From the NCBI GenBank assembly GCA_024642485.1, contig JAHEAY010000023.1:1-32761 (forward strand): a DNA stretch of 32,761 bases, written 5' to 3'. The notes beneath the pieces are model-generated. The model worked only from the letters and a program-made list of their open reading frames with translations. It was not told where the DNA came from and made no database searches. Positions 3,681 through 32,634 of this stretch are shown here, piece after piece (the first letter of the stretch is position 1; every line of letters begins with the position of its first letter). Both the position numbers and the translations under genes were made by a program. This DNA comes from Cytophagaceae bacterium. Its GTDB lineage: Bacteria; Bacteroidota; Bacteroidia; Cytophagales; Spirosomataceae.

Positions 3681-3708
3681 AGTCGCTAGTCTCTAGTCGC
3701 TAGTTTAA
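3681..3708 (+). repeat. Heptamer array, family 1 (AGTCGCT AGTCTCT AGTCGCT AGTTTAA)
   Basis: Read directly; 7-nt period immediately 5' of the argD start codon. Confidence 0.85.
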
Positions 3709-3720
3709 ATTTTAAATATT

Positions 3721-3827
3721 CCCTAGGTTTTAACCTGGGGTTAATGTTTTTTATGGCCCCTGACTTCAGTCTGGGGAATCGGCGCACAGCGCCTCAACCT
3801 TTGGCAATCCTGAAAGGTTTGCCAAAG
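3721..3827. repeat. Cluster of four hairpin-forming palindromes in the argC-argD spacer
   Basis: CCCTAGGTT-TT-AACCTGGGG (3721-3740, one mismatch); CCCCTGACT-TC-AGTCTGGGG (3757-3776, one mismatch); GGCGC-ACA-GCGCC (3781-3793); CTTTGGCAA-TCCTGAAAGGT-TTGCCAAAG (3799-3827). Confidence 0.85.
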
Positions 3828-3832
3828 ACAAA

Positions 3833-3867
3833 ACCTCTTACCTCTTACCTCTTACCTCTTACCTCCT
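3833..3867 (-). repeat. Heptamer array (ACCTCTT)x4 + ACCTCCT; GAGGTAA family on the coding strand
   Basis: Four perfect and one imperfect tandem 7-mers running into the argC stop codon (3866-3868). Confidence 0.92.
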
Positions 3868-4816
3868 AAAACCCTATCGCCTTCAATCCCAAGCCCGCGG
3901 TCTCAGGCCAGCCCAACATCAAATTCATGTTTTGAACGGCTTGGCCAGATGCGCCTTTGATTAAGTTGTCAATTACCGAGCTGATCAACAATTGGCCATC
4001 ATATACTTCTAAATGCAGAAAACATTTATTGGTATTCACCACTTGCTTCACGTCAATGGCCTTTGGACTTACAAATACGAAAGGCGAATCTTGGTAATAG
4101 CTTTCATAAAGTTCGACAGCCTCTTCCTGAGTGCCTGCAAATGCCGTGTACACATTGGCCATGATGCCGCGTGAAAAGTTTCCACGGTAGGGGATGAAAT
4201 TTACCTTGGGTGCAGGAGATTTTGTTCCCAATACCATACCGATTTCCGTCAGGTGCTGATGTGTAAAAGCTTTGTAAATGCTCACATTGTTATTTCTCCA
4301 GGAGAAATGACTCGTAGAAGATAGTGCTTGGCCTGCTCCCGTTGAGCCTGTCACCGCCGAAACGTGTATATCTGCTTTCAATAAACCCGCTTGTGCCAAA
4401 GGCAAAAGTGCCAATTCAATCGAAGTAGCGAAACAACCCGGGTTGGCGATTTTATTCGCCGACTGGATTTTTGACTTTTGGAATTCGGCTAAGCCGTAGA
4501 CAAATCCTTCGGACTCATCACGGAAATCCGTGCTCAAATCTACGATTTTGGTATGCCATGGAATCTCATTCGCTGCTAAGAATTTCTTTGATTCGCCGTG
4601 TCCAGAACACAAGAAGAGTACATCTACCGGGCTCAAATCAGCGCAGAAACGTGTATTCGTTGATCCCAAAAGATCCGTATGCACGTCAGAAACCAATTTT
4701 CCTGCTTGCGAATTGGACATAATACAAGTTAATTGAACATCCGGGTGATTGACCAAGATGCGCAATAATTCACCACCTGTGTAGCCCGCAGCGCCTACGA
4801 TTCCAATTTTAGCCAT
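3866..4816 (-). CDS. argC: N-acetyl(succinyl)-gamma-glutamyl-phosphate reductase
   Basis: MAKIGIVGAAGYTGGELLRIL, NPGCFATSIELALLPL catalytic Cys motif. Confidence 0.95.
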   Translation of the reverse strand: MAKIGIVGAAGYTGGELLRILVNHPDVQLTCIMSNSQAGKLVSDVHTDLLGSTNTRFCADLSPVDVLFLCSGHGESKKFLAANEIPWHTKIVDLSTDFRDESEGFVYGLAEFQKSKIQSANKIANPGCFATSIELALLPLAQAGLLKADIHVSAVTGSTGAGQALSSTSHFSWRNNNVSIYKAFTHQHLTEIGMVLGTKSPAPKVNFIPYRGNFSRGIMANVYTAFAGTQEEAVELYESYYQDSPFVFVSPKAIDVKQVVNTNKCFLHLEVYDGQLLISSVIDNLIKGASGQAVQNMNLMLGWPETAGLGLKAIGF

Positions 4817-6012
4817 TAGTTTGATTCGTTTACTTTCCGGTGAATCATCGTTTGGTTCGAAACGATTTTCGAGAATCCTCTCACATCATCACCCGTCCAT
4901 GCTTTGTTCATTTCCCCATAGGCACCAAATGCCGATGACATCAAGTCAAATTTCGACTCGATACCTGTCACCTGGAATTGATAAGGGGATAAAACCACGT
5001 GAACGGTCCCTGTAACATTGTCCTGTGTATCTGCTAGGAAGGTTTCGAAATTCCGCATAATTGGATCCAAGAATTGTCCTTCGTGCAATAAAGTGCCATA
5101 CATATCACCAATGTTTTGTTTCCAATACAATTGGTGTTTTGTCAACACGTGTTTCTCTAATAAATGATGCGCCTTAATGATGATCAATGGTGCAGGAGCC
5201 TCAAAGCCCACACGACCTTTGATACCAATAATTGTATCACCCACGTGAATATCTCGGCCGATCGCATAAGCACCCGCGCGTGCAGTCAATTCACGAATGG
5301 CATCTACCGAGCTTGCATATTTCTCGCCATCGATGCCCACTAATTGGCCATATTCAAATTGCAAAGATAATTTGCTCGGTTTCGTTTCTGTTAATTGTGT
5401 TGGCCATGCCTCTTCTGGTAAATAACCATCGGATGTCAACGTTTCTTTACCTCCTACCGATGTTCCCCAAAGACCTTTATTGATCGAATAAGTGGATTTA
5501 TGCCACTCTTGTACAACACCTTTTGATTTCAAGAAATCGATTTCTGCTTCACGTGATAATTGTAAGTCGCGAATAGGCGTGATGACTTCACATTCTGGTG
5601 CCAAAATGCGGAATACCACATCGAAACGAACTTGGTCATTGCCTGCACCTGTACTTCCGTGAGCGATCGCTTTGGCACCTAATTTAGCTGCATATTTAGC
5701 GACGGCAGTTGCTTGGAAAACACGCTCAGCTGAAACAGATAATGGATAAGTATTATTTTTCAATACGTTTCCAAAGACCAAATACTTGATGCAATCTTGG
5801 TAATATTCTTCCACGACATCTAACGTAACGTGTGAAGTTACTCCTAAGGAATAGGCTTTTTCTTCAATCGTCTTTAATTCCGCAGGTGAAAAACCACCTG
5901 TGTCTACCAAAGCTGAGTGCACTTCCATGCCGCGCTCTTCGGTTAAGTATTTTACACAAAATGATGTATCTAATCCCCCACTAAATGCGAGTATTACTTT
6001 CGGCTTGCTCAT
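4816..6012 (-). CDS. argG: Argininosuccinate synthase
   Basis: AFSGGLDTSFCVKYL, AHGSTGAGNDQVRFD; stop overlaps the argC start (TAATG). Confidence 0.96.
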   Translation of the reverse strand: MSKPKVILAFSGGLDTSFCVKYLTEERGMEVHSALVDTGGFSPAELKTIEEKAYSLGVTSHVTLDVVEEYYQDCIKYLVFGNVLKNNTYPLSVSAERVFQATAVAKYAAKLGAKAIAHGSTGAGNDQVRFDVVFRILAPECEVITPIRDLQLSREAEIDFLKSKGVVQEWHKSTYSINKGLWGTSVGGKETLTSDGYLPEEAWPTQLTETKPSKLSLQFEYGQLVGIDGEKYASSVDAIRELTARAGAYAIGRDIHVGDTIIGIKGRVGFEAPAPLIIIKAHHLLEKHVLTKHQLYWKQNIGDMYGTLLHEGQFLDPIMRNFETFLADTQDNVTGTVHVVLSPYQFQVTGIESKFDLMSSAFGAYGEMNKAWTGDDVRGFSKIVSNQTMIHRKVNESN

Positions 6013-6015
6013 AAT

Positions 6016-6678
6016 TTATTTGGATTTTCCTTTCTTATGGAAAGGCATTAATAATTTCTCTTTAATTTTTTTCAATTGGGTGAAGTCGGCAATGTTCTTT
6101 AAAAAGATCCATTTGTCGTCTTTTTCCGGTTTAACTGTTGTTTGTGCCGGGTCGTAAATCATCCCCGTGCATAAACAAATCTTGCGTTCCGTTCGGGTTA
6201 AGATGTCATAATTCACGCAGGATTGGCAACCTTTCCAAAAGTTATCATCTACCGGTAATTCAGAAAAGGTCGTTGGCTCATAGCCCAAATCCGAATTAAT
6301 CTTCATCACCGCGAGTGAAGTCGTAATACCAATGATTTTGGCATCCGGAAAACGTGTGCGAGATAATTCAAAAGCTTTTGATTTAACCGCTTTGGCGACA
6401 CCGTATTGTCGGTAAGATGGTTTAACGATCAAACCCGAGTTTGCGACAAACTTGCCATGTTGCCAAGTTTCAATGTAGCAAAAGCCCACGAATTCGCCTG
6501 TTACATCATCTGTTGCGATGATGGCTTTACCTTCCGACATTTTTTCTTGCAGGTATTCGGGTGTACGTTTGGCGATACCGGTGCCACGTGCTTTGGCAGA
6601 TTCTGCCATCTCGTGGCAAATAGATTCCGCTAGGTCAAAATGGGCTTGACTAGCGATTTGAACAGTATATGAATTCAT
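6016..6678 (-). CDS. GNAT-family N-acyltransferase heading the arg operon (candidate N-acyl(succinyl)glutamate synthase)
   Basis: GNAT-like fold, start at MNSYTVQIASQ, 3 nt from argG; C-terminal CxxC...CxC (CQSC...CLC). Confidence 0.8.
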   Translation of the reverse strand: MNSYTVQIASQAHFDLAESICHEMAESAKARGTGIAKRTPEYLQEKMSEGKAIIATDDVTGEFVGFCYIETWQHGKFVANSGLIVKPSYRQYGVAKAVKSKAFELSRTRFPDAKIIGITTSLAVMKINSDLGYEPTTFSELPVDDNFWKGCQSCVNYDILTRTERKICLCTGMIYDPAQTTVKPEKDDKWIFLKNIADFTQLKKIKEKLLMPFHKKGKSK

Positions 6679-6740
6679 GAATGGAATCAAGTATAAATGA
6701 AACAAATAGGTAAATCAATCTTGCAGGGGAATCATACCCT

Positions 6741-6769
6741 GAAGATGAATCTTCGTCGTCGGAGCGACG
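6741..6769. other. Two adjacent palindromes in the divergent GNAT/aat intergenic region
   Basis: GAAGAT-GA-ATCTTC (6741-6754) and CGTCG-GAG-CGACG (6757-6769). Confidence 0.6.
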
Positions 6770-6807
6770 TGACTACATACCTGTTTGAATTATTTATCTT
6801 CATGTTC

Positions 6808-6839
6808 TTGATAAACAGCGTGATTAAACGCTAATTTTG
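6808..6839 (+). promoter_or_regulatory. Bacteroidota-type promoter upstream of aat: TTG-N21-TAATTTTG
   Basis: Exact match to TAnnTTTG at 6832-6839 with TTG at 6808-6810. Confidence 0.6.
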
Positions 6840-6905
6840 TCTCGATAATAGGGGACAAATTTCAGTAATTCAACGGGGAAATCCCAACAATCAACTGATT
6901 ATTTC

Positions 6906-7514
6906 ATGGAAAATGATAATTCTTTAACAGCAGAAGCGTTGATTTATGCCTATACCTCGGGCGTCTTTCCGATGGCGGAAGCGGATGGAACGATCTATTG
7001 GTACCGTCCAGATCCCAGGGCAATCATTCCCATTGATACCTATAAGCCTGCCAAATCCCTGAAACCGATACTTAATCGGGGCCAATTTGAAATACGAATT
7101 GATACGGCATTTGAAGCTGTTATGCTAGCTTGTGCGGAACCTCGTGCGTATGAGCAGGAGACTTGGATATCGGAAGAGCTCATTCAAGCCTATGTCGAAT
7201 TACATCAAATGGGCTTCGCGCATTCGGTGGAAGCGTATGAGCATGGAGAACTCGTAGGTGGACTTTATGGCGTGCATTTCGCTTCAGCATTTTTTGGTGA
7301 ATCGATGTTTATGAAGGTTTCCAATGCGTCCAAGGTAGCCTTTCATTACTTAATTGAGATTTTGCGCGCAAATGATTTTAATTTGTTGGACACACAGTTT
7401 ATGAATGATAATGTGCAGCGATATGGAGCGATTGAAATAAAGCGTACGGCTTACGAAAAGTTATTGTCCAAGAGTTTAATGAAGGCAAGTGAATTTAAAT
7501 TGCCAGCCAAATAG
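6906..7514 (+). CDS. aat: Leucyl/phenylalanyl-tRNA-protein transferase
   Basis: YTSGVFPMAEADGTIYWYRPDPRAIIP, GGLYGVHFASAFFGESMF, LLDTQFMNDNVQRYGA. Confidence 0.95.
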   Translation: MENDNSLTAEALIYAYTSGVFPMAEADGTIYWYRPDPRAIIPIDTYKPAKSLKPILNRGQFEIRIDTAFEAVMLACAEPRAYEQETWISEELIQAYVELHQMGFAHSVEAYEHGELVGGLYGVHFASAFFGESMFMKVSNASKVAFHYLIEILRANDFNLLDTQFMNDNVQRYGAIEIKRTAYEKLLSKSLMKASEFKLPAK

Positions 7515-7560
7515 CCTAAATTTCATCATAAAGGGCTAAATTGTAGCAAAATTCAAGATT

Positions 7561-8589
7561 ATGTCAAAGCCGATTCTCGTCATTAAGTTTGGTTCATCTT
7601 CCATTACCCATGCCAATGGAGAAGTGAATGAACAGACGCTCGAGAAAATTGCGGCACAGGTAGCAAGTCTTCAAGGTGAATATTCCATTGTATTAGTATC
7701 GAGTGGCGCCGTAGCTGCGGGTAAAGGCTCTTTGAAACATTACAAAGGAACTTTGTCGGAGCGTAAGGCTGCCGCCGCGGTAGGGAATCCTTTATTAATT
7801 GCCAAATACAATCATTATTTCCAAAAATACGGTATCTCCATTGCCCAGAGTCTTTGCGAGCGTCATCATTTTTCCAAACGGGAATCTTTCCTGCAATTGA
7901 AGGAAACCTATCAAGAGCTTTGGCGAAATGACATTATTCCGATTGCAAATGAAAATGACGTGGTGAGTAATGTGGAATTAAAGTTTTCGGACAATGATGA
8001 ATTGGCAACTTTAATCGCTACCGGTTTTGGAGCTGAAAAATTATTGATTTCCACTTCGGTGGGTGGCTTATTAGATGAACAAGGTCAAATCATTCGTCAA
8101 GTTAAGGAGATCAACGCATCTATTTTGGATGTGGTGAATACGGATACATCTAGCACAGGCTTGGGCGGCATGATTTCCAAATTGACCTTCACGCGTTTGG
8201 CTACTCGAATGGGAATCAAAGTTGTGATTTTTGGATTAGATCAGGCGAATGGGATCATAGACGCTTTGCATGAAAATATCGGAACAGTTTTTGAGCCGCA
8301 ATCGGCAACACTTTCTGCCCGACAAAAATGGTTAGCTTCTGGTAGTGTCATTACCGGTAGAATCGTTTTAGATAAAGGAGCTGTCAAAGCTATCCAAAAC
8401 CGGAAGAGTCTATTATCCGTAGGAGTTCTAGAATACATCGGCGATTTCGAAAAAGGCGAAGTGGTCGAAATGCTGGACCCACAACACAATCCGATCGCCG
8501 TTGCGCGCGCGCGTTACTCCAAATCAGAGCTTGTTAATGTTACGGAAAGTAGGGAGGTGGCGAATGCGGATGATATAGTGGTCTATTAG
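7561..8589 (+). CDS. proB: Glutamate 5-kinase
   Basis: IVLVSSGAVAAGK, PIANENDVVSNVELKFSDNDELATLIA, TGLGGMISKL, C-terminal PUA-like region. Confidence 0.95.
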   Translation: MSKPILVIKFGSSSITHANGEVNEQTLEKIAAQVASLQGEYSIVLVSSGAVAAGKGSLKHYKGTLSERKAAAAVGNPLLIAKYNHYFQKYGISIAQSLCERHHFSKRESFLQLKETYQELWRNDIIPIANENDVVSNVELKFSDNDELATLIATGFGAEKLLISTSVGGLLDEQGQIIRQVKEINASILDVVNTDTSSTGLGGMISKLTFTRLATRMGIKVVIFGLDQANGIIDALHENIGTVFEPQSATLSARQKWLASGSVITGRIVLDKGAVKAIQNRKSLLSVGVLEYIGDFEKGEVVEMLDPQHNPIAVARARYSKSELVNVTESREVANADDIVVY

Positions 8590-8641
8590 TCGTTGGACGT
8601 TAGACATTGGTTTTTAGACATTAGACTTTGGACGTTGGAAT
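8586..8641 (+). repeat. Heptamer array, family 2 (TTRGACR), 8 units overlapping the proB stop
   Basis: TTAGTCG TTGGACG TTAGACA TTGGTTT TTAGACA TTAGACT TTGGACG TTGGAAT. Confidence 0.9.
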
Positions 8642-8753
8642 TATTTGTGTATGGATGCGATACTTTACGACCAATATTATCACCAATTTGATAAAATTGA
8701 ATCTTTATCAATTTTAATACTCATGATTATTTGAATTCATTCTTTCTTTGTTC

Positions 8754-9128
8754 ATGAAGAAAAAAGAAAGAAAAGTTGAGGATTTGATTGTTTGGCAGCA
8801 AGCCATTGATGTTGCGAATGTAATTTATTTGAATTTTAATTCATTGCACGATTTCGGTTTTAGAAGTCAAATTCAACGCGCAGCAGTTTCCATTTCTAAT
8901 AATATTGCTGAAGGATTTTATCGAAAATCTGACCGTGAATTTAAGCGCTTTCTTACTATTGCTCTCGGTTCAATGGGTGAACTGAAATCGATGTTGATTC
9001 TCGCCGTTCATTTGAAATATATATCAGGAGCATTACAATCGATATTAACAGATCAACTTAATCAGATAGGCAAGATGATTAATTCGCTTATTAATTACTT
9101 GGGACGTGAAATTGAAAGCTCTAAATGA
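8754..9128 (+). CDS. Four-helix-bundle protein of the 23S rRNA intervening-sequence (S23) family
   Basis: VEDLIVWQQAIDVANVIY...FGFRSQIQRAAVSISNNIAEGFYRKSDREFKRFLTIALGSMGELKS is characteristic of this family; no 23S rRNA nearby. Confidence 0.9.
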   Translation: MKKKERKVEDLIVWQQAIDVANVIYLNFNSLHDFGFRSQIQRAAVSISNNIAEGFYRKSDREFKRFLTIALGSMGELKSMLILAVHLKYISGALQSILTDQLNQIGKMINSLINYLGREIESSK

Positions 9129-9131
9129 AAA

Positions 9132-9155
9132 AAGACGCGAATTTCTTCGCGTCTT
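9132..9155 (-). terminator. secA terminator, perfect 10-bp stem
   Basis: AAGACGCGAA-TTTC-TTCGCGTCTT; on the minus strand followed by TTTTTT (from the 9128-9133 A-run). Confidence 0.8.
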
Positions 9156-9168
9156 AATTAATATGCTT

Positions 9169-9203
9169 CTAACGTCTAACGTCCATTGTCCAACGTCTAT
9201 TCC
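9169..9203 (-). repeat. Heptamer array, family 2, inverted, starting at the secA stop
   Basis: CTAACGT CTAACGT CCATTGT CCAACGT CTATTCC on the plus strand. Confidence 0.9.
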
Positions 9204-12200
9204 ACAACCACCGCTTTCCCACTCTCCACATCCGCTTCCACAGCCTTGTACTTAACATTTTCCTTAATGCTTCCATCTTGGTATTGTACCGTTACGCGTT
9301 GGTTGCGATCCGCAATTTTGATGGCTTGACGAGGTGCTACACGCTCCGCTTGGCCTGCCGATGGATCATGGTAGCCTGGCTCTTCTTGTGCGCCAGCTAA
9401 TCCACCTAATAAAGAAGATAATGCCTCATCCTTGCTCATTTGCAATTTAGGTGCCTTCTCTTTCGGTGCTTTGGGTGCCGTTTGATTCGTCGATTGTGCC
9501 GCAGGAATTTCCGCTTTGATCACGAAGCTAATCGTATCCGAATTCACACGTGCCACAAAACGTTGGAATAAATCCACCGCCTCAAACTTATAAATCAATA
9601 ATGGATCTTTCTGCTCAAACACTGCATTTTGAACGGATTGCTTCAAATCATCCATTTCACGCAAATGCTCCTTCCACTCTTGGTCGATCAAGGTCAACGT
9701 GATGAATTTCTCCATCTCAGAGATTACTTCTTTTCCTTGTGTCGCCAACGTTTTGTCGGCATCTACCACAACACCCGTCACCATGTGGCCATTCGAAATT
9801 GGAACCTGAATGCCCGAGAATCCTTGACGCTTCGCCTCTTCCGCCACCTGAATTACTTGCTGTGCAATGATTTCATTCTTCGCCTTGTAATGCATTTCTG
9901 CCGCTAAGAATAATTGTTCTGTCCGTTTATCTAGCGCCAATCGATTAAACTCTTCCGCCGTGAACGGTGGCTCCATGCCTAATAATTCAATCACTTTTAG
10001 TTCAAGCTCCTCATAATTTGAATAGCTTGTTGTGATGTCCTGGCATACATCGAACAAAATATTGATGATGTCCAACGATAAACGCTCGCCTAATAATGCA
10101 TTTTGGCGTCGCTTATAAATCGCATTCCGTTGGTAATTCATTACGTCATCGTATTCCAATAAACGCTTACGAATACCAAAGTTGTTTTCTTCTACCTTTT
10201 TCTGCGCGCGCTCAATCGAATTCGTAATCATCGAGTGTTGAATCACTTCGCCTTCGTCCATGCCTAAACGATCCATCACTTTCGCGATACGATCTGAACC
10301 GAATAAACGCATTAAATTATCCTCCAATGACACAAAGAATTGAGATGAACCCACATCGCCTTGACGTCCCGCCCGACCGCGCAACTGACGGTCAACCCGA
10401 CGAGATTCGTGGCGCTCTGTACCGATAATCGCTAAACCACCCGCAGCTTTTGACTCCGGACTCAACTTAATATCCGTTCCACGACCAGCCATGTTGGTCG
10501 CAATGGTTACCTTGCCTGATTGTCCCGCTTCCGCCACAATCTCTGCCTCTCTAGCATGTTGTTTGGCATTCAAGACATTGTGTTGAATCTTACGGATATT
10601 CAATAATCGACTCAATAATTCTGAGTTTTCTACTGAAGTCGTACCCACCAATACCGGTCGGCCTGCAGCAACCAATTCTTGAATTTCTTCCGCTACGGCA
10701 TTGTATTTCTCACGCACCGTACGATAAACTTTATCCTCATGATCTTTACGTTGGATCGTACGATTCGTAGGAATCGAAACCACATCCAATTTGTAAATCG
10801 TCCAGAATTCACCTGCTTCCGTTTCCGCCGTTCCTGTCATACCGCCTAATTTGTGGTACATACGGAAGTAATTTTGCAAGGTTATCGTCGCATAGGTTTG
10901 TGACGCATCTTCCACGTTCACACCTTCTTTGGCCTCAATCGCCTGGTGTAATCCGTCGGAATACCGGCGGCCTTCCATCACACGACCTGTTTGCTCATCG
11001 ACAATCTTAACCTTACCTTCTACTAAGATGTATTCGGTATCTTTTTCGAATAGGGTATAGGCCTTCAACAACTGATTAACTGTGTGAATGCGTGATGCCT
11101 TCTCATTGTATTCGCTGATCAATTGCTCTTTTTTTGCCAAACGCTCCGCGTCCGACAAATCTCTATTCTTTTCGATTTTATTTAAATCGATCGACAAGTG
11201 TGGCAAAACGAAAAAGTCGGGATTCTCGGTGTTTCCACTCATGAATGCCAATCCTTGTTCGGTCAATTCAACTTGATTATTCTTTTCTTCAATCGTGAAT
11301 AATAACGGCTCATCTGCATGCGGCATCAATTTTTGGTTCTCTGCCAAATAAATCGATTCCGTTTCATGCATCAATTGCTTCATGCCGCTCTCCGACAAGA
11401 ATTTAATCAACGGTTTTGATTTCGGTAAACCGCGATAAGCGCGGAATAAGGCAAGACCACCTTCTTTTTTATTGCCAGCTGCAATTTCTTTTTTGGCCTC
11501 AACCAAGAAGTTTTGAACGATTTGTTTTTGAGCCTCAACCAATTTATTTACTCGGGGTTGAAATGCTTCAAACTCTTGTTCATCTCCTTTTGGAATAGGA
11601 CCTGAGATAATTAATGGTGTACGTGCATCATCGATTAACACGGAGTCAACCTCATCCACCATCGCAAAATGATGCGGACGTTGAACCTGATCTTCCAAAC
11701 TGCGCGCCATGTTGTCACGCAAATAATCAAAACCAAATTCATTATTTGTTCCGTAGGTAATGTCTGCCAAATAAGCTTGGCGACGCTCTTCTGTATTCGG
11801 CTCATGCTTGTCGATACAATCCACCTTCAAGCCATGGAATTCGAATAAAGGCGCATTCCATTCGGAGTCACGTTTCGCAAGATAATCATTCACGGTTACC
11901 AAGTGAACCCCACGTCCGGCTAAGGCATTTAGATAGGTAGGCAAGGTAGAAACCAAGGTTTTCCCTTCCCCTGTACCCATTTCAGAAATCTTTCCTTGGT
12001 GTAAAACGATACCACCGATCAACTGTACGTCATAGTGGATCATGTCCCAAGTAATCTGGTTTCCAGCGGCCAACCATTGATTATGCCAAATCGCTTTTTC
12101 ACCTTCAATTACGACATTCGCCTTTTTAGCTGCGATGAACTTGTCTTCAACCGTTGCGGTTACGACTAATTTCTTGTTTTCTGTCAAACGACGAGCGGTT

Positions 12201-12556
12201 TCTTTTACAACTGCGAATGCTTCTGGAAGAATTTCCATCAAGACAACTTCCAATTGTTTATTACGATCCTCGTTTAATTTATCGATTTGAACAAAGAAAG
12301 TCTCCTTCTCATCGATATCCTCAGTTGCATTTCCTTGCTCGCGCAAAGCGACAATTTGTGCATCGATATCCGCTAAAAATTCCTGAATGCGTTGCTTGAA
12401 TTCGTAAGACTTTCCACGAAGTGCATCATCCGAAATCTCATGCAAACGAGCATATTCTTCCTTGATCTTTTCCACAATCGGCATGATTGCTTTGATGTCA
12501 CGCTCCGACTTCGTGCCAAATATTTTTGTAACGCTTTTGCTTAGTATTGAAAACAT
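9197..12556 (-). CDS. secA: Preprotein translocase ATPase SecA
   Basis: [61 protein letters not shown]; likely start [14 protein letters not shown] at 12556. Confidence 0.97.
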
Positions 12557-12708
12557 GGTAATATAGGGCCTACCTAGGCTTGGTGATAATTTAATTTGCA
12601 ATTTACCAATTTGAATTTTTATCCTTGCTATGTTCCGACAATTAATCCAAAATTTTTACGGATTTGAATTCGAAATTCATTTGTTTTGTAGCTCAATTTT
12701 GAATTCTT

Positions 12709-13173: not shown

Positions 13174-13237
13174 ATAATATCAGTTTTTTGATAATCGGTA
13201 AAATCAATTTACCTTAGGGCAACATTCTACTATAACA

Positions 13238-14608: not shown

Positions 14609-14612
14609 GGTC

Positions 14613-16165: not shown

Positions 16166-16206
16166 AAACTTGAATTTCGCACAACAAACATTTTGAATTT
16201 TCGTTG

Positions 16207-18684: not shown

Positions 18685-18693
18685 GCCCTAGTA

Positions 18694-21363: not shown

Positions 21364-21375
21364 GCGGTATTAACA

Positions 21376-21915: not shown

Positions 21916-21961
21916 TAGAGTGATTAAGAATATAAAACAAAAACAACTAGATTAAACTTTT

Positions 21962-22540: not shown

Positions 22541-22561
22541 GTTAGCTGATTCTTTTGAAGA

Positions 22562-22590
22562 AAGCCTCGATGAAAATCGGGGCTTTTTTT
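22562..22590 (+). terminator. Terminator after ompH copy 2
   Basis: AAGCCTCGAT-GAAA-ATCGGGGCTT followed by T-run. Confidence 0.85.
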
Positions 22591-22602
22591 GTGGATTTTG
22601 TG

Positions 22603-22769
22603 GAGACGCGATACTTCGCGTCAATTGGACGTTAGACTTTAGACGTTGGACTTTTGAGATGAATAACTCGCGTCTATTAGACGGTGGACTTTGGACGCTG
22701 GACTTTAGAAATGAATACCGCGCGTCTATTGGATTATATCGTTGGTCTTAGACGCGATGTATCGCGTCT
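22603..22769 (+). repeat. Family 2 heptamers in two 52-bp tandem units, bracketed by GACGCGA palindromes
   Basis: Units 22624-22675 and 22676-22727; palindromes GACGCGA-TACT-TCGCGTC and AGACGCGAT-GT-ATCGCGTCT on the two sides. Confidence 0.85.
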
Positions 22770-22780
22770 CTACAAATTAG

Positions 22781-23506: not shown

Positions 23507-23515
23507 ATTATAGCG

Positions 23516-25296: not shown

Positions 25297-25408
25297 TGAT
25301 TTTGAAATAGCTTGCAAATATAAGAGAATTAATAATCCGTTGAATCGGTGAAGTATAAAATAAAATAAACAAAACGTTTGGGGCGTTAGCCTTGTAAATC
25401 CGAAAATT

Positions 25409-26503
25409 ATGAATGCCAATTTAGACATTGTACCTATGCAAGAGTGGATTCAGACTGGTGGAAAGCCGTTGATTATTGCGGGTCCATGTTCAGCTGAAAC
25501 TGAGGAGCAAGTATTAGAAACTGCCCGTCGTATCAAGGCGGAAGGTTATGCACACATTATGCGTGCTGGAGTTTGGAAACCTCGTACACGTCCAGGAAGC
25601 TTTGAAGGTATGGGTGAACCTGCTTTGAAGTGGTTGGTAGAGGCGAAAAAAGAAACGGGATTGCCATTGGCTATCGAAGTTGCAACGCCTGAGCACATTG
25701 AATTGGCTTTGAAATATGGTGTTGATGTATTGTGGATTGGTGCACGTACTACCGTTAATCCATTCAACGTACAAGATTTAGCTGATGCATTGAAAGGTGT
25801 TGATGTTCCTGTATTGGTTAAAAATCCGGTTAATCCTGATTTGGCTTTATGGGTAGGAGCATTTGAACGTTTACAAGGTTCAGGTATCAAGAAATTAGGT
25901 GCAATTCACCGTGGTTTCTCAAACGCACAAGAAACGAAATACCGTAACTCACCAATGTGGGCAATGGCGGTTGAGTTGAAGCGTTTATTTCCTCAAATGC
26001 CAATCATCGGTGATCCATCGCACATGGCTGGAAAGCGTGCTTTATTGATGGAATTGTCGCAACGTATTTTGGATTTGAACTACGATGGTATGATCATCGA
26101 GACTCACCGCGATCCAGATGCGGCTTGGTCTGATGCTTCTCAACAAGTTACTCCGGAGAAATTAGGTGAAATGTTGCGCGAATTAGAAGTTCGTAATGCA
26201 AATTACGGTTCAGACTTCTCTGACGAATTAGCAGGTCTTCGTGAGAAGATTGACAACATCGATCGTGAATTGATGGAAGTTTTAGCTGCTCGTATGGCAG
26301 TTGTTGAGAAATTAGGAGAGTACAAGCGTGATAACAACGTTGCAGTATTGCAATTGGATCGTTGGAAGCAATTGCACAATGATCGTGCAAACCAAGCTAA
26401 AGGCTTAGGCTTGTATCCTGAATTCGTAGAGGAAATGTTCAAATTGGTTCACTTAGAATCTATCCGTAAACAAACGGAAGTAATGAATTCTGCTACGGCA
26501 TAA
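25409..26503 (+). CDS. Bifunctional DAHP synthase (type I-beta-like) / chorismate mutase (AroQ-type)
   Basis: IIAGPCSAETEEQV, MRAGVWKPRTRPGSFEG, GDPSHMAGKR, then LREKIDNIDRELMEVLAARMAVVEKLGEYKRDNN. Confidence 0.93.
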   Translation: MNANLDIVPMQEWIQTGGKPLIIAGPCSAETEEQVLETARRIKAEGYAHIMRAGVWKPRTRPGSFEGMGEPALKWLVEAKKETGLPLAIEVATPEHIELALKYGVDVLWIGARTTVNPFNVQDLADALKGVDVPVLVKNPVNPDLALWVGAFERLQGSGIKKLGAIHRGFSNAQETKYRNSPMWAMAVELKRLFPQMPIIGDPSHMAGKRALLMELSQRILDLNYDGMIIETHRDPDAAWSDASQQVTPEKLGEMLRELEVRNANYGSDFSDELAGLREKIDNIDRELMEVLAARMAVVEKLGEYKRDNNVAVLQLDRWKQLHNDRANQAKGLGLYPEFVEEMFKLVHLESIRKQTEVMNSATA

Positions 26504-26530
26504 TTTGAACTTTGTATAATATTGATTGCT

Positions 26531-26564
26531 GAGCCCTGAGAGAAATCTTGGGGCTCGCTTTTTT
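26531..26564 (+). terminator. Terminator after the DAHP synthase gene
   Basis: GAGCCC...GGGCTC stem followed by a T-rich tract. Confidence 0.75.
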
Positions 26565-26568
26565 AAAT

Positions 26569-26603
26569 GAGTTAAGAATTAAGAGTTAAGAGTGAAGAAT
26601 TTT
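26569..26603 (+). repeat. Heptamer array, family 3 (GAGTTAA)
   Basis: GAGTTAA GAATTAA GAGTTAA GAGTGAA GAATTTT. Confidence 0.9.
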
Positions 26604-26638
26604 TGTAATTGATAGATTGAAATACTTGTGCTTTCTCC

Positions 26639-26686
26639 ACCTCTTACCTCTTAATTCTTCACTCTTAACTCTTAACTCTTCTCTCA
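26639..26686 (-). repeat. Heptamer array, family 3, inverted, abutting the EamA gene stop
   Basis: Minus strand GAGAGAA GAGTTAA GAGTTAA GAGTGAA GAATTAA GAGGTAA GAGGTGG; shares a 23-bp exact segment with 26569-26603. Confidence 0.9.
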
Positions 26687-27580
26687 CTTCTTGCTCACCC
26701 GATAACTCCCCCAAACCACCATTACCATCCCCAAGCAAATCAAGAAGGAAGGAAAGCCATGCCCCAAAGCGATTTCAATGGCAATTGAAAACACCACGGC
26801 ACTATTTCCTACAGCTCCTACAATACTGGTTTGCTCATTCAATAGAGCCTGAGTCGTAAAGTATTGAACGCCTAGGGCTAATAAGCCCATAACTAATGCT
26901 TTTACCCACTCAAAGGGGGTAGGCATTACCCAAACTCCCGTAAAAAAACTGTTCGGCATTTCTAAAAATGTACCTAAACACAAGGAGATAGTTGATGCAA
27001 TTAAGCCAGCACCCATAAAGGACACAACCACCCAACGGGAGTCATAATATTTCTGTGCCTCTTTAATCGCCAGGTAACCGAGCGCCGTCCCCATCGCATA
27101 AATGATTCCCGTTGCATGATTGAACCACTGGCCCGTGGCTTCCGGTTGGAAGATTAATAAAATTCCGAAAAAGCCGACCATCAAAAACAACACCTGTTTG
27201 CTTGTCAAACGTTCATTGGGAATCAGAAAAAAGCTAAAGATTGCGATGAATAAGGGAAACGCCTGGCCATAGGTGTTGGTTAGTGAAAGTCCCAAATGTT
27301 CCAAGGTGTAGAACAAGCAATATAAAGTAAATGCTCCCAGCAAACCCCGAAGAATAATGAAATAAAGTTTGCCACCTTTTTGAACTGCTGGCCTGCGAAT
27401 CAAGCTCGTTAATAGAAAGGGGAGGCCTACAGCACTTCGAAAAAACACCAATTCCACCGATCCGAATCGGTCGCTCATGGATTTGGCAAGTGCCGACATC
27501 AATGCAAAACACAAAGAAGAAATGAGCATGTAGCCGATTCCTTTATTCTTGTACCAAACCTTGTGTATTTTTTTGCGCAT
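26684..27580 (-). CDS. EamA/DMT-family transporter
   Basis: 10-TM pattern, GYMLISSLCFALMSALAKSM...; start MRKKIHKVWYK is preferred over the longer ORF. Confidence 0.85.
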   Translation of the reverse strand: MRKKIHKVWYKNKGIGYMLISSLCFALMSALAKSMSDRFGSVELVFFRSAVGLPFLLTSLIRRPAVQKGGKLYFIILRGLLGAFTLYCLFYTLEHLGLSLTNTYGQAFPLFIAIFSFFLIPNERLTSKQVLFLMVGFFGILLIFQPEATGQWFNHATGIIYAMGTALGYLAIKEAQKYYDSRWVVVSFMGAGLIASTISLCLGTFLEMPNSFFTGVWVMPTPFEWVKALVMGLLALGVQYFTTQALLNEQTSIVGAVGNSAVVFSIAIEIALGHGFPSFLICLGMVMVVWGSYRVSKK

Positions 27581-27657
27581 GAATAAATCGATTCCGCAGT
27601 TTCCTGATTCGAGATTCAGGCAAATTTTGGTAACTTGCATCTCTTATTTCAAAGGTA

Positions 27658-28031
27658 TGACAAAAAAAATAATTTTTTCTCCTGACGCCCCCGCTGCAAT
27701 TGGTCCTTACTCGCAAGCGGTCGAAGTGAACGGCATGGTTTTCGTTTCCGGTCAAATCGCTTTAAGCGTGTTTGAGTCTGGCGCGAGCATCGAAGAAGAA
27801 ACGGACCAAGTCATGAAAAACATGGGTCACATTCTAAAAGCGGCAGGTTGCTCGTATTCAGATGTGGTCAAATGTTCCATCTTTGTCAAAGACATGGATA
27901 ATTTTGCCAAAATTAACCAAGTATACGGGGCATATTTTCCCGAAAATCCTCCCGCACGCGAAACGGTCGAAGTGGCAAGACTCCCCAAAGATGTGCGTGT
28001 AGAAATTGCTTGTATTGCCTATAAATCATAA
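27658..28031 (+). CDS. ridA: RidA family enamine/imine deaminase
   Basis: MTKKIIFSPDAPAAIGPYSQAVEVNGMVFVSGQIAL...RETVEVARLPKDVRVEIACIA. Confidence 0.92.
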
Positions 28032-28034
28032 TAT

Positions 28035-29540
28035 ATGTCATCATCAGTTCGCGTTCGTTTTGCCCCAAGTCCTACGGGTCCCTTACACATCGGTGGGGTT
28101 AGAACCGCGTTATATAATTATCTCTTCGCGCGTAAAATGGGCGGAACATTCATTCTTCGGATTGAAGATACCGACCAAACGCGTTTCGTTCCCGGAGCGG
28201 AGCAATACATTTTAGATAGCTTAGCTTGGTTGGGCATTAGCCCCGACGAAGGTGTGGGTGCTGCTGGGCCGCATGCACCTTACCGACAAAGCGAGCGGAA
28301 AGAACTTTACAAAGCCTATGCGGATCAATTGATTCGCGAGGAAAAAGCCTATTATGCTTTTGATACATCCGAGGAATTGGATGCGATGCGGACGATGTTT
28401 GAAAGTAAAGGTTCTGCATTTCAATACAATGCGTTAACACGCGTTAAACTACGTAATTCCTTGGCGTTGCCTGCTGCAGAAGTGCAAGCATTATTGGATG
28501 TAAATACGCCTTATGTGATTCGGTTAAAGGTTCCTGCCAAAGGAGAAATTCGTTTCCAAGATTCTGTTCGTGACTGGGTGCATGTTCATACGTCGAGTAT
28601 CGATGATAAGGTTTTGATGAAATCAGACGGCATGCCTACTTACCATTTGGCGAATGTGGTAGATGATCACATCATGGAAATTACGCATGTGATTCGTGGA
28701 GAAGAATGGTTGCCATCGGCTCCTTTACATATTCTTTTGTACCAAGCATTCGGTTGGACCGCGCCACAATTCGCACACCTACCACTTTTATTAAAGCCAG
28801 AAGGAAATGGTAAATTGTCCAAACGCGATGCGGATTTAGGCGGTTTCCCCGTATTCCCAATGGAATGGACGGATCCACTAACGGGTGCCGTTTCCAAAGG
28901 ATTTAAGCAAGAAGGTTATTTGCCTGAAGCGACCTTGAATTTCTTAGCCTTTTTAGGTTGGAATCCAGGTACGGAGCAAGAATTATTTAACTTGACGGAA
29001 TTAGTTGATGCCTTTTCATTGGAACGTATCAACAAAGCTGGAGCCAAATTTGATGTAAATAAAGCCAAATGGTTTAATGAGCAATATTTGAAACAACAAG
29101 CTCCTGAATTATTAGCGAAAGAATATTTGGGACATTTACCTTCCGAACAAGGTTTGGCATTTGTTTCTCTGTTTTTAGACCGAATTACTTTTCCTCAGGA
29201 ATTGTCAACATTGGTGGCTGCATTTATCGAAAGTCCTTCGACTTATGATGAGGCTGTTATTCAAAATAAATGGAATGCGGAAGCTGAGAAAGGTTTGCGC
29301 TTGCTTGCAGATGCGTTGCCTAAGGTTGGCGTTTGGCAAGCCGACGAGATAAAACATGCGATTCACGAATGTTTAGAAGCGGCAGGAATCAAAATGGGGA
29401 AGGTCATGCAAATTTTACGTGTTGCCCTTAGTGGCAATGGTGCAGGGCCAGATTTGATGATATCCATGCAATTATGGGGAAAGGATCAAGTGGTAGAACG
29501 ATTATCAGCTGCATTACAAGCATTTCCACAAAATAGCTAA
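28035..29540 (+). CDS. gltX: Glutamate-tRNA ligase
   Basis: RFAPSPTGPLHIGGVRTALYNYLFAR, KLSKRDAD (KMSKS-like). Confidence 0.96.
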   Translation: MSSSVRVRFAPSPTGPLHIGGVRTALYNYLFARKMGGTFILRIEDTDQTRFVPGAEQYILDSLAWLGISPDEGVGAAGPHAPYRQSERKELYKAYADQLIREEKAYYAFDTSEELDAMRTMFESKGSAFQYNALTRVKLRNSLALPAAEVQALLDVNTPYVIRLKVPAKGEIRFQDSVRDWVHVHTSSIDDKVLMKSDGMPTYHLANVVDDHIMEITHVIRGEEWLPSAPLHILLYQAFGWTAPQFAHLPLLLKPEGNGKLSKRDADLGGFPVFPMEWTDPLTGAVSKGFKQEGYLPEATLNFLAFLGWNPGTEQELFNLTELVDAFSLERINKAGAKFDVNKAKWFNEQYLKQQAPELLAKEYLGHLPSEQGLAFVSLFLDRITFPQELSTLVAAFIESPSTYDEAVIQNKWNAEAEKGLRLLADALPKVGVWQADEIKHAIHECLEAAGIKMGKVMQILRVALSGNGAGPDLMISMQLWGKDQVVERLSAALQAFPQNS

Positions 29541-29722
29541 TGAAAGCAAAACCAAAACCAAAGGCGCCCAAAGTTCATCCGGATTTAGCCGGATTTGAAA
29601 TGAATATAGATTCATTGGGCCAAATCACGACAAATTTGGATCGTGATGCCTTGAACGCATTTTTGGATAAAGAAATGCCGGAGGATAAAAAATTAAGATC
29701 AAAGAAAGATGAAGGTAAGTAA
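29540..29722 (+). CDS. Small hypothetical protein between gltX and gatC
   Basis: 60 aa; start overlaps the gltX stop (TAATG), end overlaps gatC by 14 nt. Confidence 0.65.
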   Translation: MKAKPKPKAPKVHPDLAGFEMNIDSLGQITTNLDRDALNAFLDKEMPEDKKLRSKKDEGK

Positions 29723-29996
29723 GGAGGATGTTGTTAAGATCGCGCATTTAGCACGTTTGGATTTGAAAGAATCGAAGGTGGCAGAAATGCAAGATTCCAT
29801 CAACAAGGTTTTGGATTGGATGGAAGCTTTGAATGTGGTGGATACGCAGCATGTTGCCCCTTTGGCACACATGACTTCGGCTTTAAATCACTTCCGAGAA
29901 GATAAGGCGATTTCGAATTTAGCGCGTGAAAAAGCACTCGCATTAGGGCCGGATACCAACGAGCAATATTTTAAAGTTCCACAAGTAATCGAGTAA
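29709..29996 (+). CDS. gatC: Asp-tRNA(Asn)/Glu-tRNA(Gln) amidotransferase subunit C
   Basis: VSKEDVVKIAHLARLDLKESK...VLDWMEALNVVDTQHVAPLAHMT. Confidence 0.92.
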   Translation: MKVSKEDVVKIAHLARLDLKESKVAEMQDSINKVLDWMEALNVVDTQHVAPLAHMTSALNHFREDKAISNLAREKALALGPDTNEQYFKVPQVIE

Positions 29997-31025
29997 TTAT
30001 CCGATGTAATATTCCAAGGCTTTCTTCATCTCCGCCTTGGTCACAGGAATATCATAACCACAATCTCCAATCCCTGTAAGTAGCGAGAATCGAATTTCGG
30101 ATCCTTTGTTTTTCTTGTCCTGGGATGTTAATTGTATAATTGCTGGGATTTCATTTGCTTTTATTTGAACACGGCCGTAGGTAGCAAATAACATAGCTTC
30201 GATGGCCTCTAATTCTTCAGCCTCCAATAAGTTGCGTTCAAATGCCAAATAGGCCTCTGTAATCATACCCACAGCAATAGCTTCTCCATGCAAAACGGCA
30301 CGTTTGCCTAATCCCAACAGGTAGGTTTCAACCGCATGACCTAATGTGTGTCCAAAATTTAAAATTTTTCGCAAGCCTTTTTCTTTCGGATCTTCTTCTA
30401 CAACTGCTTTTTTGATTTCGACAGAATGGGCGATTAAATCAGCTAGGTCAACTTGGTCAAAATCCAAAGCTGCGATTGTTTCCCATTTTGCAGAATCTCG
30501 GATTAAACAATGTTTAATGATTTCCGCAAAGCCTGACAATTTTTGACGATGTGGAAGTGTCTGAATGAAAAATGGGTCTATCAAAACAGTTTTAGGCAAT
30601 TGGAATACCCCAATGTGATTTTTTAAGCCATGAAAATCGATTCCCAATTTCCCTCCTACGCTTGCATCCACTTGTGCTAATAAGGTAGTTGGTATTTGAA
30701 TAAAATCAATGCCTCTTTTATATGTAGATGCGCAAAAGCCGCCCATATCTCCAATCACCCCACCACCAAGGTTTATGACTAATCCATGACGATCCATGTT
30801 GGCACGTGTCATCGCCTGCCAAATTTTCTCACAAGTTGCGAGTGTTTTGTTCTCTTCTCCAGATTTGATAACGATTTTCGTATGATTTTTCGGGAGCAAG
30901 GATTGAATAAGAGGTAAACAATGTTTTTGTGTCTTTTCGTCCACAATAACTGCGATATGTGAATAATCGTGTTGGCTTAAAAAGCTCGATAAAGTTGCAG
31001 AAATTGCGCCGATTTGAACTGACAT
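29997..31025 (-). CDS. aroB: 3-dehydroquinate synthase
   Basis: NLGGGVIGDMGGFCASTYKRGIDFIQIPTTLLAQVDASVGGKLGID, LNFGHTLGHAVE; start MSVQIGAI at 31025. Confidence 0.95.
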   Translation of the reverse strand: MSVQIGAISATLSSFLSQHDYSHIAVIVDEKTQKHCLPLIQSLLPKNHTKIVIKSGEENKTLATCEKIWQAMTRANMDRHGLVINLGGGVIGDMGGFCASTYKRGIDFIQIPTTLLAQVDASVGGKLGIDFHGLKNHIGVFQLPKTVLIDPFFIQTLPHRQKLSGFAEIIKHCLIRDSAKWETIAALDFDQVDLADLIAHSVEIKKAVVEEDPKEKGLRKILNFGHTLGHAVETYLLGLGKRAVLHGEAIAVGMITEAYLAFERNLLEAEELEAIEAMLFATYGRVQIKANEIPAIIQLTSQDKKNKGSEIRFSLLTGIGDCGYDIPVTKAEMKKALEYYIG

Positions 31026-31100
31026 GGTTGATTTTATTCGATGGAAATTCAAAAATACGACGATTTTACTAAAATAGACGGATTGTAACCTGAATTTTGG

Positions 31101-31132
31101 TTTTGCGGTGTGCTTTTTCTTGCCTAATTTTG
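31101..31132 (+). promoter_or_regulatory. Promoter: TTTTG-N19-TAATTTTG
   Basis: 31101-31105 and 31125-31132; exact match to TAnnTTTG. Confidence 0.75.
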
Positions 31133-31167
31133 TCGCTGCTTGGGAATGCCCAAAACAAAGATATCAT

Positions 31168-32151
31168 ATGAGAGAAATTCAATTTAGAGAAGCCTTACGT
31201 GAGGCTATGCAAGAGGAAATGCGTCGCGACGATACTGTCTTCTTAATGGGAGAAGAAGTTGCGGAATACAATGGTGCTTACAAAGTGTCACAAGGTATGT
31301 TGGACGAATTTGGTCCAGAGCGCGTGATTGATACCCCAATCGCTGAATTAGGTTTCGGTGGTATTGGTGTCGGTGCTGCTGCGAATGGTTTACGTCCGAT
31401 TATTGAGTTCATGACTTTTAACTTCTCTTTGGTGGCTATTGACCAAATCATCAACTCAGCATCTAAGTTGATGTCGATGTCGGGAGGTCAGTATTCTTGT
31501 CCTATTGTTTTCCGTGGACCTACCGGAAATGCTGGGCAATTATCCTCACAACACTCATCCAATTTTGAAAATTGGTTTGCTAATACTCCTGGACTTAAAG
31601 TGGTTGTTCCTGCAACGCCAGCGGATGCGAAAGGCTTAATGAAGGCTTCTATTCGTGATAATGACCCTGTTATTTTCATGGAATCGGAATTGATGTATGG
31701 AGATAAGGGTTTAGTGCCAGACGGTGAATATTTGATTCCGATTGGTAAAGCAAATGTTGTGAAAGCGGGTACGGATGTGACAATTGTTACTTTTGGTAAA
31801 ATGTTGTCTCGTGTGGTTTTGCCAGCGGTAGAAGAATTAGCAAAACAAGGAATCAATGCTGAAGTAATCGATTTGCGTACTGTTCGTCCAATCGATTATT
31901 TGACTGTTGTTGAGTCAGTTAAGAAAACAAACCGTTGTGTCGTTGTTGAGGAAGCTAATCCATTATCTGCTATCTCATCTGAAATTGCATACCACTTACA
32001 ACGTTGGGCTTTTGATTATTTAGATGCACCAGTAGTTCGTGTGAATTCACGTGACTTACCTTTGCCATATGCTCCAACATTAATCGAAGAGATTTTGCCA
32101 AACGTAGCTCGTACAATCGATGCGGTGAAGACGGTGATGTATCGTAAATAG
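31168..32151 (+). CDS. pdhB: Pyruvate (2-oxoacid) dehydrogenase E1 component beta subunit
   Basis: MREIQFREALREAMQEEMRRDDTVFLMGEEVAEYNGAYKVSQGML...; start set downstream of the promoter. Confidence 0.93.
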   Translation: MREIQFREALREAMQEEMRRDDTVFLMGEEVAEYNGAYKVSQGMLDEFGPERVIDTPIAELGFGGIGVGAAANGLRPIIEFMTFNFSLVAIDQIINSASKLMSMSGGQYSCPIVFRGPTGNAGQLSSQHSSNFENWFANTPGLKVVVPATPADAKGLMKASIRDNDPVIFMESELMYGDKGLVPDGEYLIPIGKANVVKAGTDVTIVTFGKMLSRVVLPAVEELAKQGINAEVIDLRTVRPIDYLTVVESVKKTNRCVVVEEANPLSAISSEIAYHLQRWAFDYLDAPVVRVNSRDLPLPYAPTLIEEILPNVARTIDAVKTVMYRK

Positions 32152-32420
32152 TCGCTAGTCATCAGTCACTAGTCGCTAGACTGATAAATTAGCTAAAATA
32201 TATAAGCCCTGCTTGGTATTCCAGACGGGGCTTTTTTATTCAGTCGATAGTCACTAGTCATCAGTCACTAGTCGGATAAATTATCCAACATATTAATCCC
32301 CACTAGGGTTTCTCAATGAGGCTTTTTTTTAATAGTTGTCAGTCACTTGTCGCTAGTCAGATAAATTACCTTTAAAATAATTTCATTGCTGGGCTTTGAG
32401 TTTTCAATAGGTCTCAAAAA
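32149..32420 (+). repeat. Tandem composite units: family 1 heptamers + GATAAATTA + terminator-like segment (about 3 copies)
   Basis: GATAAATTA at 32183, 32275 and 32360 (spacings 92 and 85); each preceded by 5, 5 and 4 heptamers. Confidence 0.9.
32204..32237 (+). terminator. pdhB terminator
   Basis: AAGCCC-TGCT-TGG-TATT-CCA-GACG-GGGCTT followed by T-run. Confidence 0.85.
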
Positions 32421-32429
32421 ATCAATGCT

Positions 32430-32463
32430 TGACTAGTGACTAGCGACTGTTGACTAGCGACTT
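32430..32463 (-). repeat. Family 1 heptamers, inverted orientation
   Basis: TTGACTAGTGACTAGCGACTGTTGACTAGCGACT. Confidence 0.85.
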
Positions 32464-32471
32464 ACCTCCCC

Positions 32472-32510
32472 AAAAAAGCCCCACCTGGAATACCAAGCGA
32501 GGCTTTTTTT
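32472..32510 (-). terminator. Bidirectional terminator, near reverse complement of the 32204-32237 hairpin
   Basis: AAAAAAGCC-CCACC-TGG-AATA-CCA-AGCGA-GGCTTTTTTT. Confidence 0.8.
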
Positions 32511-32536
32511 CTTTCGTGTTATAGATGTCAGCTAAT

Positions 32537-32634
32537 GACTAGCGACTGACAACTAGTGACTAGCGACTGATGACTAGCAACTAGTGACTAGCGACTGACA
32601 ACTAGTGACTAGCGACTGATGACTAGTGACTATT
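32537..32634 (-). repeat. Fourteen consecutive family 1 heptamers with 49-bp higher-order period
   Basis: GACTAGC GACTGAC AACTAGT GACTAGC GACTGAT GACTAGC AACTAGT | GACTAGC GACTGAC AACTAGT GACTAGC GACTGAT GACTAGT GACTATT. Confidence 0.95.

What the first reader, a model, noticed from the sequence alone, without database searches (positions are those of the whole stretch)
3681..32634. Unrelated intergenic repeat families that all share a 7-nt period
Seven loci in 32 kb carry degenerate tandem repeats with a strict 7-bp unit, from at least three distinct sequence families: TAGTCRC/CAGTCAY (3681, 32149-32360, 32430, 32537), TTRGACG/TTRGACT (8586, 9169, 22624) and GAGKTAA/GAATTAA (3833, 26569, 26639). 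Each family recurs at distant loci, which suggests dispersal or gene conversion, yet the unit length is always 7. Heptanucleotide STRR repeats are established in cyanobacteria. I do not know of a described multi-family heptamer system in this lineage, but I could not search for one. The conserved period with changing sequence suggests that length is the constrained property.
Basis: partly seen in the sequence, partly recalled or inferred. Interest (0 to 1): 0.82.

Follow-up and report, generated by a model that had tools for sequence, protein, structure and literature searches.

The report
Heptamer arrays are mobile-element arms
The seven-letter DNA repeats between these bacterial genes are the matching ends of a tiny, poorly recognised mobile element built around one small protein gene (the 23S rRNA 'intervening sequence protein'), plus its gene-less offshoots, which may explain why 7-base repeats turn up in so many unrelated bacteria.

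Summary
Every coordinate carries a period-7 array, and in 570 kb of the same genome period 7 dominates (41 arrays at TRF score >=40; none at period 6 or 8).

The arrays are not free-standing. Window 8586-9201 is one complete unit: a TTRGACN array, a gene for a PF05635 four-helix-bundle protein (IVP/S23p), and the same array inverted. In loci of this genus, of its order, of named genomes from several phyla and of plasmids, IVP genes are bracketed by inverted, locus-specific, usually period-7 arms, including two classic 23S rRNA intervening sequences. Near-identical cyanobacterial plasmids show arms plus gene inserted as one unit into sites lacking both (four filled/empty sites). An IVP-less element with the same arms inserted into an IVP gene and recurs elsewhere.

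So the window's three families are arms of IVP elements (two have an IVP gene in this genome, the third in a sister species at the orthologous site) and IVP-less derivatives. Each genome's scattered arrays tend to match its own IVP arms. How the element moves, whether IVP drives it, and why the unit is 7 are unknown. I found no paper linking IVP to heptamer repeats, but only open-access text was searchable.

The parts
3681..3704 (+). TAGTCRC heptamer array (no IVP gene here), left end of intergenic region 3675-3865
   Evidence: TRF; identical 24/24 in sister species G035
3833..3865 (-). GAGKTAA-family array, right end of the same intergenic region; two units longer in G035
   Evidence: TRF; alignment
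8586..8640 (+). 5' arm (TTRGACN array) of the complete IVP element between proB and secA; it contains the proB stop codon
   Evidence: TRF; sequence; gene names
8748..9128 (+). IVP gene: four-helix-bundle protein PF05635/TIGR02436 (ATG at 8754)
   Evidence: PF05635 2.2e-32, TIGR02436 1.7e-30, PDB 2GSC 4.8e-14
9133..9154 (.). inner hairpin AGACGCGAATTTCTTCGCGTCT between IVP and 3' arm; also inside the TTRGAC-armed IVP element of G023 (related hairpins in G006, G012)
   Evidence: sequence; enrichment
9168..9201 (-). 3' arm (inverted TTRGACN array) of the IVP element
   Evidence: TRF; arms pair when the region is folded as RNA, z -4.6
22604..22775 (+). IVP-less TTRGACN arrays (22616-22730) with GACGCGA..TCGCGTC hairpins; different sequence at the orthologous site in G035
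   Evidence: TRF; sequence; alignment
26569..26601 (+). GAGTTAA array, left arm of an IVP-less inverted pair between convergent genes
   Evidence: TRF; one 7-bp unit fewer in G035
26633..26685 (-). GAGTTAA array, right (inverted) arm of the same pair
   Evidence: TRF
32149..32179 (+). TAGTCRC array overlapping the stop codon of the upstream gene
   Evidence: TRF
32248..32273 (+). TAGTCRC array, second copy of an array + GATAAATTA + terminator-like module
   Evidence: TRF
32339..32360 (+). CAGTCAC/TAGTC array, third copy of the module
   Evidence: sequence; scan
32430..32462 (-). inverted TAGTCRC array
   Evidence: TRF
32532..32632 (-). inverted TAGTCRC array (49-bp higher-order unit)
   Evidence: TRF

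Best explanation
The arrays are the terminal arms of a small (~0.4-0.6 kb) mobile element and its IVP-less derivatives. The full element is: forward heptamer array, short leader, a gene for a PF05635 four-helix-bundle protein (IVP/S23p), the same array inverted. SHOWN: this anatomy in four sets of loci; insertion of arms plus gene as a unit at four plasmid sites; mobile IVP-less elements with matching arms in Nostoc plasmids; purifying selection on IVP; closely related IVP proteins share arm families; dispersed arrays in a genome tend to match that genome's IVP arms. INFERRED: most solo arrays in the window derive from such elements; IVP (a homopentamer in X. campestris) recognises its own arms as DNA or as the RNA/ssDNA hairpin they form, and acts in trans on IVP-less copies. 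UNKNOWN: the cutting/joining or copying enzyme, and why the unit is 7. My preferred guess is that 7 is the footprint spacing of IVP on the arms, with replication slippage adjusting copy number.
For: Window 8586-9201 is array-IVP-inverted array. Across 31 genus IVP loci nearly all have arrays on both sides, mostly period 7, a few period 15 or 19. Lag-7 identity just after the IVP stop is 0.57 (genus), 0.52 (order), 0.47 (named genomes) while lags 3-6 and 8-13 lie between 0.20 and 0.30. Inverted-arm score exceeds the 99th percentile of 984 control genes in 48/49 genus, 21/30 order, 23/27 named and 12/17 plasmid loci; within-locus match median 31 versus 9 between loci in the genus. Filled/empty sites: cas10-cmr3, a conjugative-plasmid locus, two Nostoc loci. 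A ~180-bp IVP-less element with the same arms sits inside an IVP gene (L379), with full-length relatives elsewhere. Two 23S rRNA genes (L361, L308) carry IVP with inverted heptamer arms. Arm heptamers occur at 20 arrays/Mb in the own genome versus 6 in others, IVP loci masked, 0 of 10,000 label shuffles as high. IVP identity versus heptamer sharing: r 0.60, 0 of 5000 permutations. dN/dS mostly 0.03-0.24. Inner GACGCGA hairpin at 29/46 TTRGAC arrays. At the proB-secA site G035 has a GAGTTAA-armed IVP in opposite orientation.
Against: Only 2 IVP genes were found for about 100 arrays in this MAG. No window solo array was individually shown to be an insertion. Target-site duplications are inconsistent (one plausible, GTAAT[T]AA, among four sites). 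No recombinase, RT or Y1 transposase accompanies the element, so the mobility mechanism is missing. Some IVP loci have weak or no period 7 (e.g. L256, L272; L363; period-15/19 arms); L362 has direct rather than inverted AAAAGCY arrays. The GAGTTAA family has no IVP gene in this 89%-complete genome. G003 and G059 have TTRGAC arrays but no TTRGAC-armed IVP was found.
Confidence: 0.8

Rival explanations
1. Slippage only: heptamers expand because of how DNA polymerase meets the template (the proposal of Mrazek and colleagues, 2007, as cited by MacGregor 2015); IVP is irrelevant.
For: Array length differs from the sister species by whole units. Heptanucleotide excess is reported for many prokaryotes. 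No trans-acting enzyme is known.
Against: Slippage does not explain inverted, locus-specific arms on both sides of one gene family in several phyla, insertion of arms plus gene as a unit, or the match between a genome's arrays and its IVP arms.
Confidence: 0.1
2. Target preference: IVP elements insert into heptamer arrays that existed already.
For: Arrays outnumber IVP genes. Different IVP classes occupy the same proB-secA site in window and G035.
Against: Empty plasmid sites lack the arrays. The arms of the 23S rRNA insertions lie inside an rRNA gene that otherwise matches LSU rRNA across its length.
Confidence: 0.05
3. Host regulatory sites: arrays are protein-binding or terminator/translation control sites kept by selection (as suggested for TAACTGA in Beggiatoaceae).
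For: Arrays often lie next to terminator-like hairpins or between convergent genes. One array is conserved 24/24 in a sister at about 92% local identity.
Against: Families are replaced at orthologous sites and are patchy between species of one genus. Polarity follows element arms, not transcription.
Confidence: 0.05

Closest known systems
23S rRNA intervening sequences (IVS) of Leptospira, Coxiella and others
   Same: Same protein family and inverted terminal repeats forming a stem. Coxiella IVS has 2-3 tandem heptamers (GACAGAT) before the S23p ORF, variable between strains (PMC4990558). L361 and L308 are such IVS with heptamer arms.
   Different: The window element is intergenic, not in rRNA; other intergenic elements have long tandem heptamer arms; many IVP-less copies accompany it. 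RNase III processing was not tested.
STRR / long simple sequence repeats: GGGGAYT in Nostoc, GGGAATC in Xanthomonas, TAACTGA in Beggiatoaceae, Cyanobacteria and Bacteroidetes
   Same: Intergenic tandem heptamers, dispersed, sometimes inverted, species-specific (PMC4692102, PMC4679880). GAATTAC arrays flank an Oscillatoriales IVP gene (L312).
   Different: In the passages read, those reports treat the repeats as slippage products or regulatory sites and do not mention IVP genes.
REP sequences and REP-associated tyrosine transposases (RAYT)
   Same: Works alike in outline: a rare gene bracketed by copies of a dispersed repeat, plus many gene-less copies.
   Different: No Y1 transposase found in this genome; the repeats are tandem heptamer arrays; the protein is a helical bundle.
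Avd of diversity-generating retroelements
   Same: Distant similarity of the four-helix bundle (NF033474, 23 bits).
   Different: Far below the family cut-off (80 bits); no reverse transcriptase found in the genome.

Membership tests
PF05635 / TIGR02436 (IVP, S23p) | profile match above curated cut-off | tested here: met
   111.9 bits versus 33.8; 105.5 versus 24
23S rRNA intervening sequence | located in a 23S rRNA helix | tested here: not met
   window element lies between proB and secA; no rRNA in the window at gathering thresholds
23S rRNA intervening sequence | terminal inverted repeats able to form a stem around the IVP ORF | tested here: met
23S rRNA intervening sequence | excised from RNA by RNase III | not testable with these tools
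   needs RNA-end mapping
STRR / heptanucleotide LSSR | tandem heptanucleotide repeats, intergenic, several families per genome | tested here: met
MITE-type non-autonomous element | shares terminal sequences with a full element and is found inserted at sites that lack it | tested here: met
   for Nostoc plasmids; for the window's own solo arrays only indirect
MITE-type non-autonomous element | regular target-site duplication and a known transposase | tested here: inconclusive
   one plausible duplication among four sites; no transposase in the element
REP/RAYT | Y1 (HUH) transposase gene flanked by the repeats | tested here: not met
   no PF01797 match in G000, G007, G020, G013
DGR Avd | Avd equivalog score and a linked reverse transcriptase | tested here: not met
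   23.1 bits versus cut-off 80; no PF00078 in G000

The most novel reading that the evidence does not exclude
A previously unrecognised, cross-phylum class of transposable element: a pentameric four-helix-bundle protein without any known recombinase, bracketed by inverted heptamer arrays that it recognises through their 7-nt period, moves itself and swarms of gene-less copies, and is the main source of heptanucleotide repeats in bacteria.
Probability: 0.4. Interest if true: 0.95.

Novelty: new variant of a known kind. Interest (0 to 1): 0.87.

Why it matters
Heptanucleotide repeats have been reported in Cyanobacteria, Xanthomonas, Beggiatoaceae and Bacteroidetes with no agreed cause, and IVP/S23p is a widespread family with no known function. 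Linking the two gives each a testable role: IVP elements as the source of the repeats, and mobility of heptamer-armed elements as the job of IVP. It would also place the classic 23S rRNA intervening sequences as one special case of a broader element.

Tried and rejected
(1) Arrays oriented by transcription: tandem gene pairs give 12 sense versus 14 antisense by my tally; rejected in favour of inward-facing pairs. (2) Stop codons in all frames as the constraint: considered, not tested. (3) IVP near every array: only 2 of 114 named 8-kb loci with TTRGAC arrays hold an IVP gene, so most arrays are IVP-less. (4) GATAA leader motif as a general mark of solo arrays: not enriched except weakly for TAGTC arrays (4 inner, 1 outer of 28). 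(5) Simple percentile test of lag 7 per gene: weak in this genus because its dispersed arrays raise the control; replaced by the inverted-arm test. (7) The reversed control for the AATGGT pattern is uninformative because it resembles the unit. (8) Rfam finds no RNA family in the window. (9) No IVP relative in the phage collection.
Full report
What was checked. The window is contig C36 of a 2.54-Mb, 238-contig, 89%-complete genome; its long-type SecA (PRK12901) fits Bacteroidota, which is an inference. In 570 kb of this genome TRF finds 74 period-7 arrays versus 9 in a Markov surrogate; at score >=40 there are 41 of period 7 and none of period 6 or 8. Autocorrelation of intergenic DNA peaks at 7, 14 and 21. 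Sister species have the same period with other heptamers, such as AATGGTG, AAAGCAT and TATAGAG in G007 and AAATTAT, AATGTAG and TAGTTAT in G018. Distribution inside the genus is patchy: TTRGAC occurs in 8 of 38 genomes at zero mismatches, TAGTCRC in 16, AATGGT in 16.

Arrangement. Arrays face inward from the flanking genes (60 versus 16) and sit mostly between convergent genes (43 of 76). Adjacent same-family pairs are head-to-head 14 times and tail-to-tail twice. This polarity matches the arms described next.

The sister species. G035 contig C29 is syntenic with the whole window at 85-92% identity over most of its length. Array lengths differ by whole units at intergenic regions 3675-3865 and 26504-26683. 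At the proB-secA region (window 8590-9196) both species have arrays at both ends, but the window has TTRGACN and G035 has GAGTTAA, around DNA that does not align. Both cargoes are PF05635 genes, in opposite orientation.

IVP genes are bracketed by heptamer arms. The genome has two PF05635 genes: the window one (TTRGACN arms) and one on C157 (TAGTCGC array upstream; the contig ends on the other side). Of the 31 genus loci, nearly all have a tandem array just upstream and its inverted counterpart just downstream, mostly of period 7, some of period 15 or 19. Lag-7 identity beside IVP genes is raised in the genus, in 30 loci of the order and in 30 loci from named genomes of several phyla. Against 984 control genes, the inverted-arm score passes the 99th percentile in 48/49, 21/30, 23/27 and 12/17 loci of the four sets. 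Arms match within a locus, not between loci. Arms include GGGCATT in Tychonema, GAATTAC in an Oscillatoriales MAG, and AGGAGTC or GGGAGTA in Nostoc-type plasmids. Two loci, Azospirillum lipoferum and Ca. Formimonas, are 23S rRNA genes carrying IVP with inverted heptamer arms, so the classic intervening sequences share this anatomy. Consistent with that, the Coxiella IVS has heptamers before its S23p ORF (PMC4990558).

The unit is mobile. Near-identical cyanobacterial plasmids give filled and empty sites: cas10-cmr3 in Picosynechococcus PCC 7003 versus 7002; a conjugative-plasmid locus in Trichormus and Scytonema versus Nostoc linckia, Aulosira and N. carneum; and two neighbouring sites in Nostoc plasmids. 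The empty sites lack both arms and gene. In Nostoc N6 an IVP-less element of about 180 bp with inverted heptamer arms has inserted into the IVP gene itself; full-length relatives, 83-92% identical, lie elsewhere in Nostoc plasmids. Target duplications are not consistent.

Link between IVP and dispersed arrays. With IVP loci masked, arm heptamers of a genome's own IVP genes occur at 20 arrays/Mb in that genome versus 6 in others; none of 10,000 label shuffles reached this. The six genomes with TAGTCGC-armed IVP have the six highest TAGTCRC counts of 38, but those counts include the arms themselves. Four genomes with TTRGAC-armed IVP are all among the eight with TTRGAC arrays. G035, whose proB-secA site holds a GAGTTAA-armed IVP instead, has only 4 exact TTRGAC matches. 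These comparisons are not corrected for phylogeny. Solo TTRGAC arrays carry a GACGCGA/TCGCGTC hairpin on their inner side in 29 of 46 cases, against about 1% expected from the genome, and TTRGAC-armed IVP elements carry such hairpins inside. IVP proteins above 80% identity share about half their heptamers, below 60% almost none. IVP is under purifying selection (dN/dS mostly 0.03-0.24).

Mechanism. Shown: anatomy, insertion as a unit, mobile IVP-less copies, selection on IVP. Inferred: IVP recognises its arms and acts in trans. The arms can pair: folding 8583-9203 as RNA pairs the two ends, z -4.6. Reverse transcriptase (PF00078) and Y1 transposase (PF01797) are not found in this genome or in the 99%-complete G020, so neither seems required, although recent mobility was not shown in those genomes. 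The enzyme that cuts or copies is unknown. Seven may reflect IVP spacing on the arms; slippage can add or remove units, as seen.

Relation to known things. Heptanucleotide repeats are well described (PMC4679880, PMC4692102), with polymerase slippage or regulation as proposed causes. IVS are called selfish elements with S23p of unknown function (PMC4990558). Nine searches of the open-access library found no paper joining the two; subscription papers were not searchable. The window element is a member of the IVP protein family but not a 23S IVS by location; it works like one in anatomy, and like REP/RAYT systems in population structure, without being either.

Noticed in passing
32149-32360: Array + GATAAATTA + terminator-like hairpin module present three times in tandem; G035 has fewer copies.
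   Followed up: partly
22604-22775 and 9133-9154: GACGCGA..TCGCGTC hairpins (full form GTAGAGACGCGAT..ATCGCGTCTCTAC) accompany TTRGAC arrays; resembles, from memory, palindromes seen in other bacteria.
   Followed up: partly
L225, L229, L231 and others (hemE-engB-like locus of the genus): An IVP element sits at what looks like the same divergent promoter region in many species, with different arm families and in both orientations (gene names from memory of the sequence, not tested).
   Followed up: partly
L315, L319, L324, L326, L254: One IVP clade has arms of about 19 bp built from TTAGTC plus small palindromes; another clade has 15-bp units (AGTCCGGAGGGAAAG). Period 7 is usual, not universal.
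   Followed up: no
L358, L362 (cyanobacterial plasmids): IVP genes sit between cas6 and cas4 of type I-D CRISPR-Cas operons; another lies inside a cmr operon (L367).
   Followed up: no
L036, L059 (Pseudomonas stutzeri NCTC11607 record, CABDVE010000001.1): TTRGAC heptamer arrays in a 1.9-Mb genome under this name, which has no IVP match; the size suggests a mislabelled or partial record.
   Followed up: no
L196:18804-19117 (G012): A 314-bp TTRGAC array, far longer than others, without an IVP gene found beside it.
   Followed up: no
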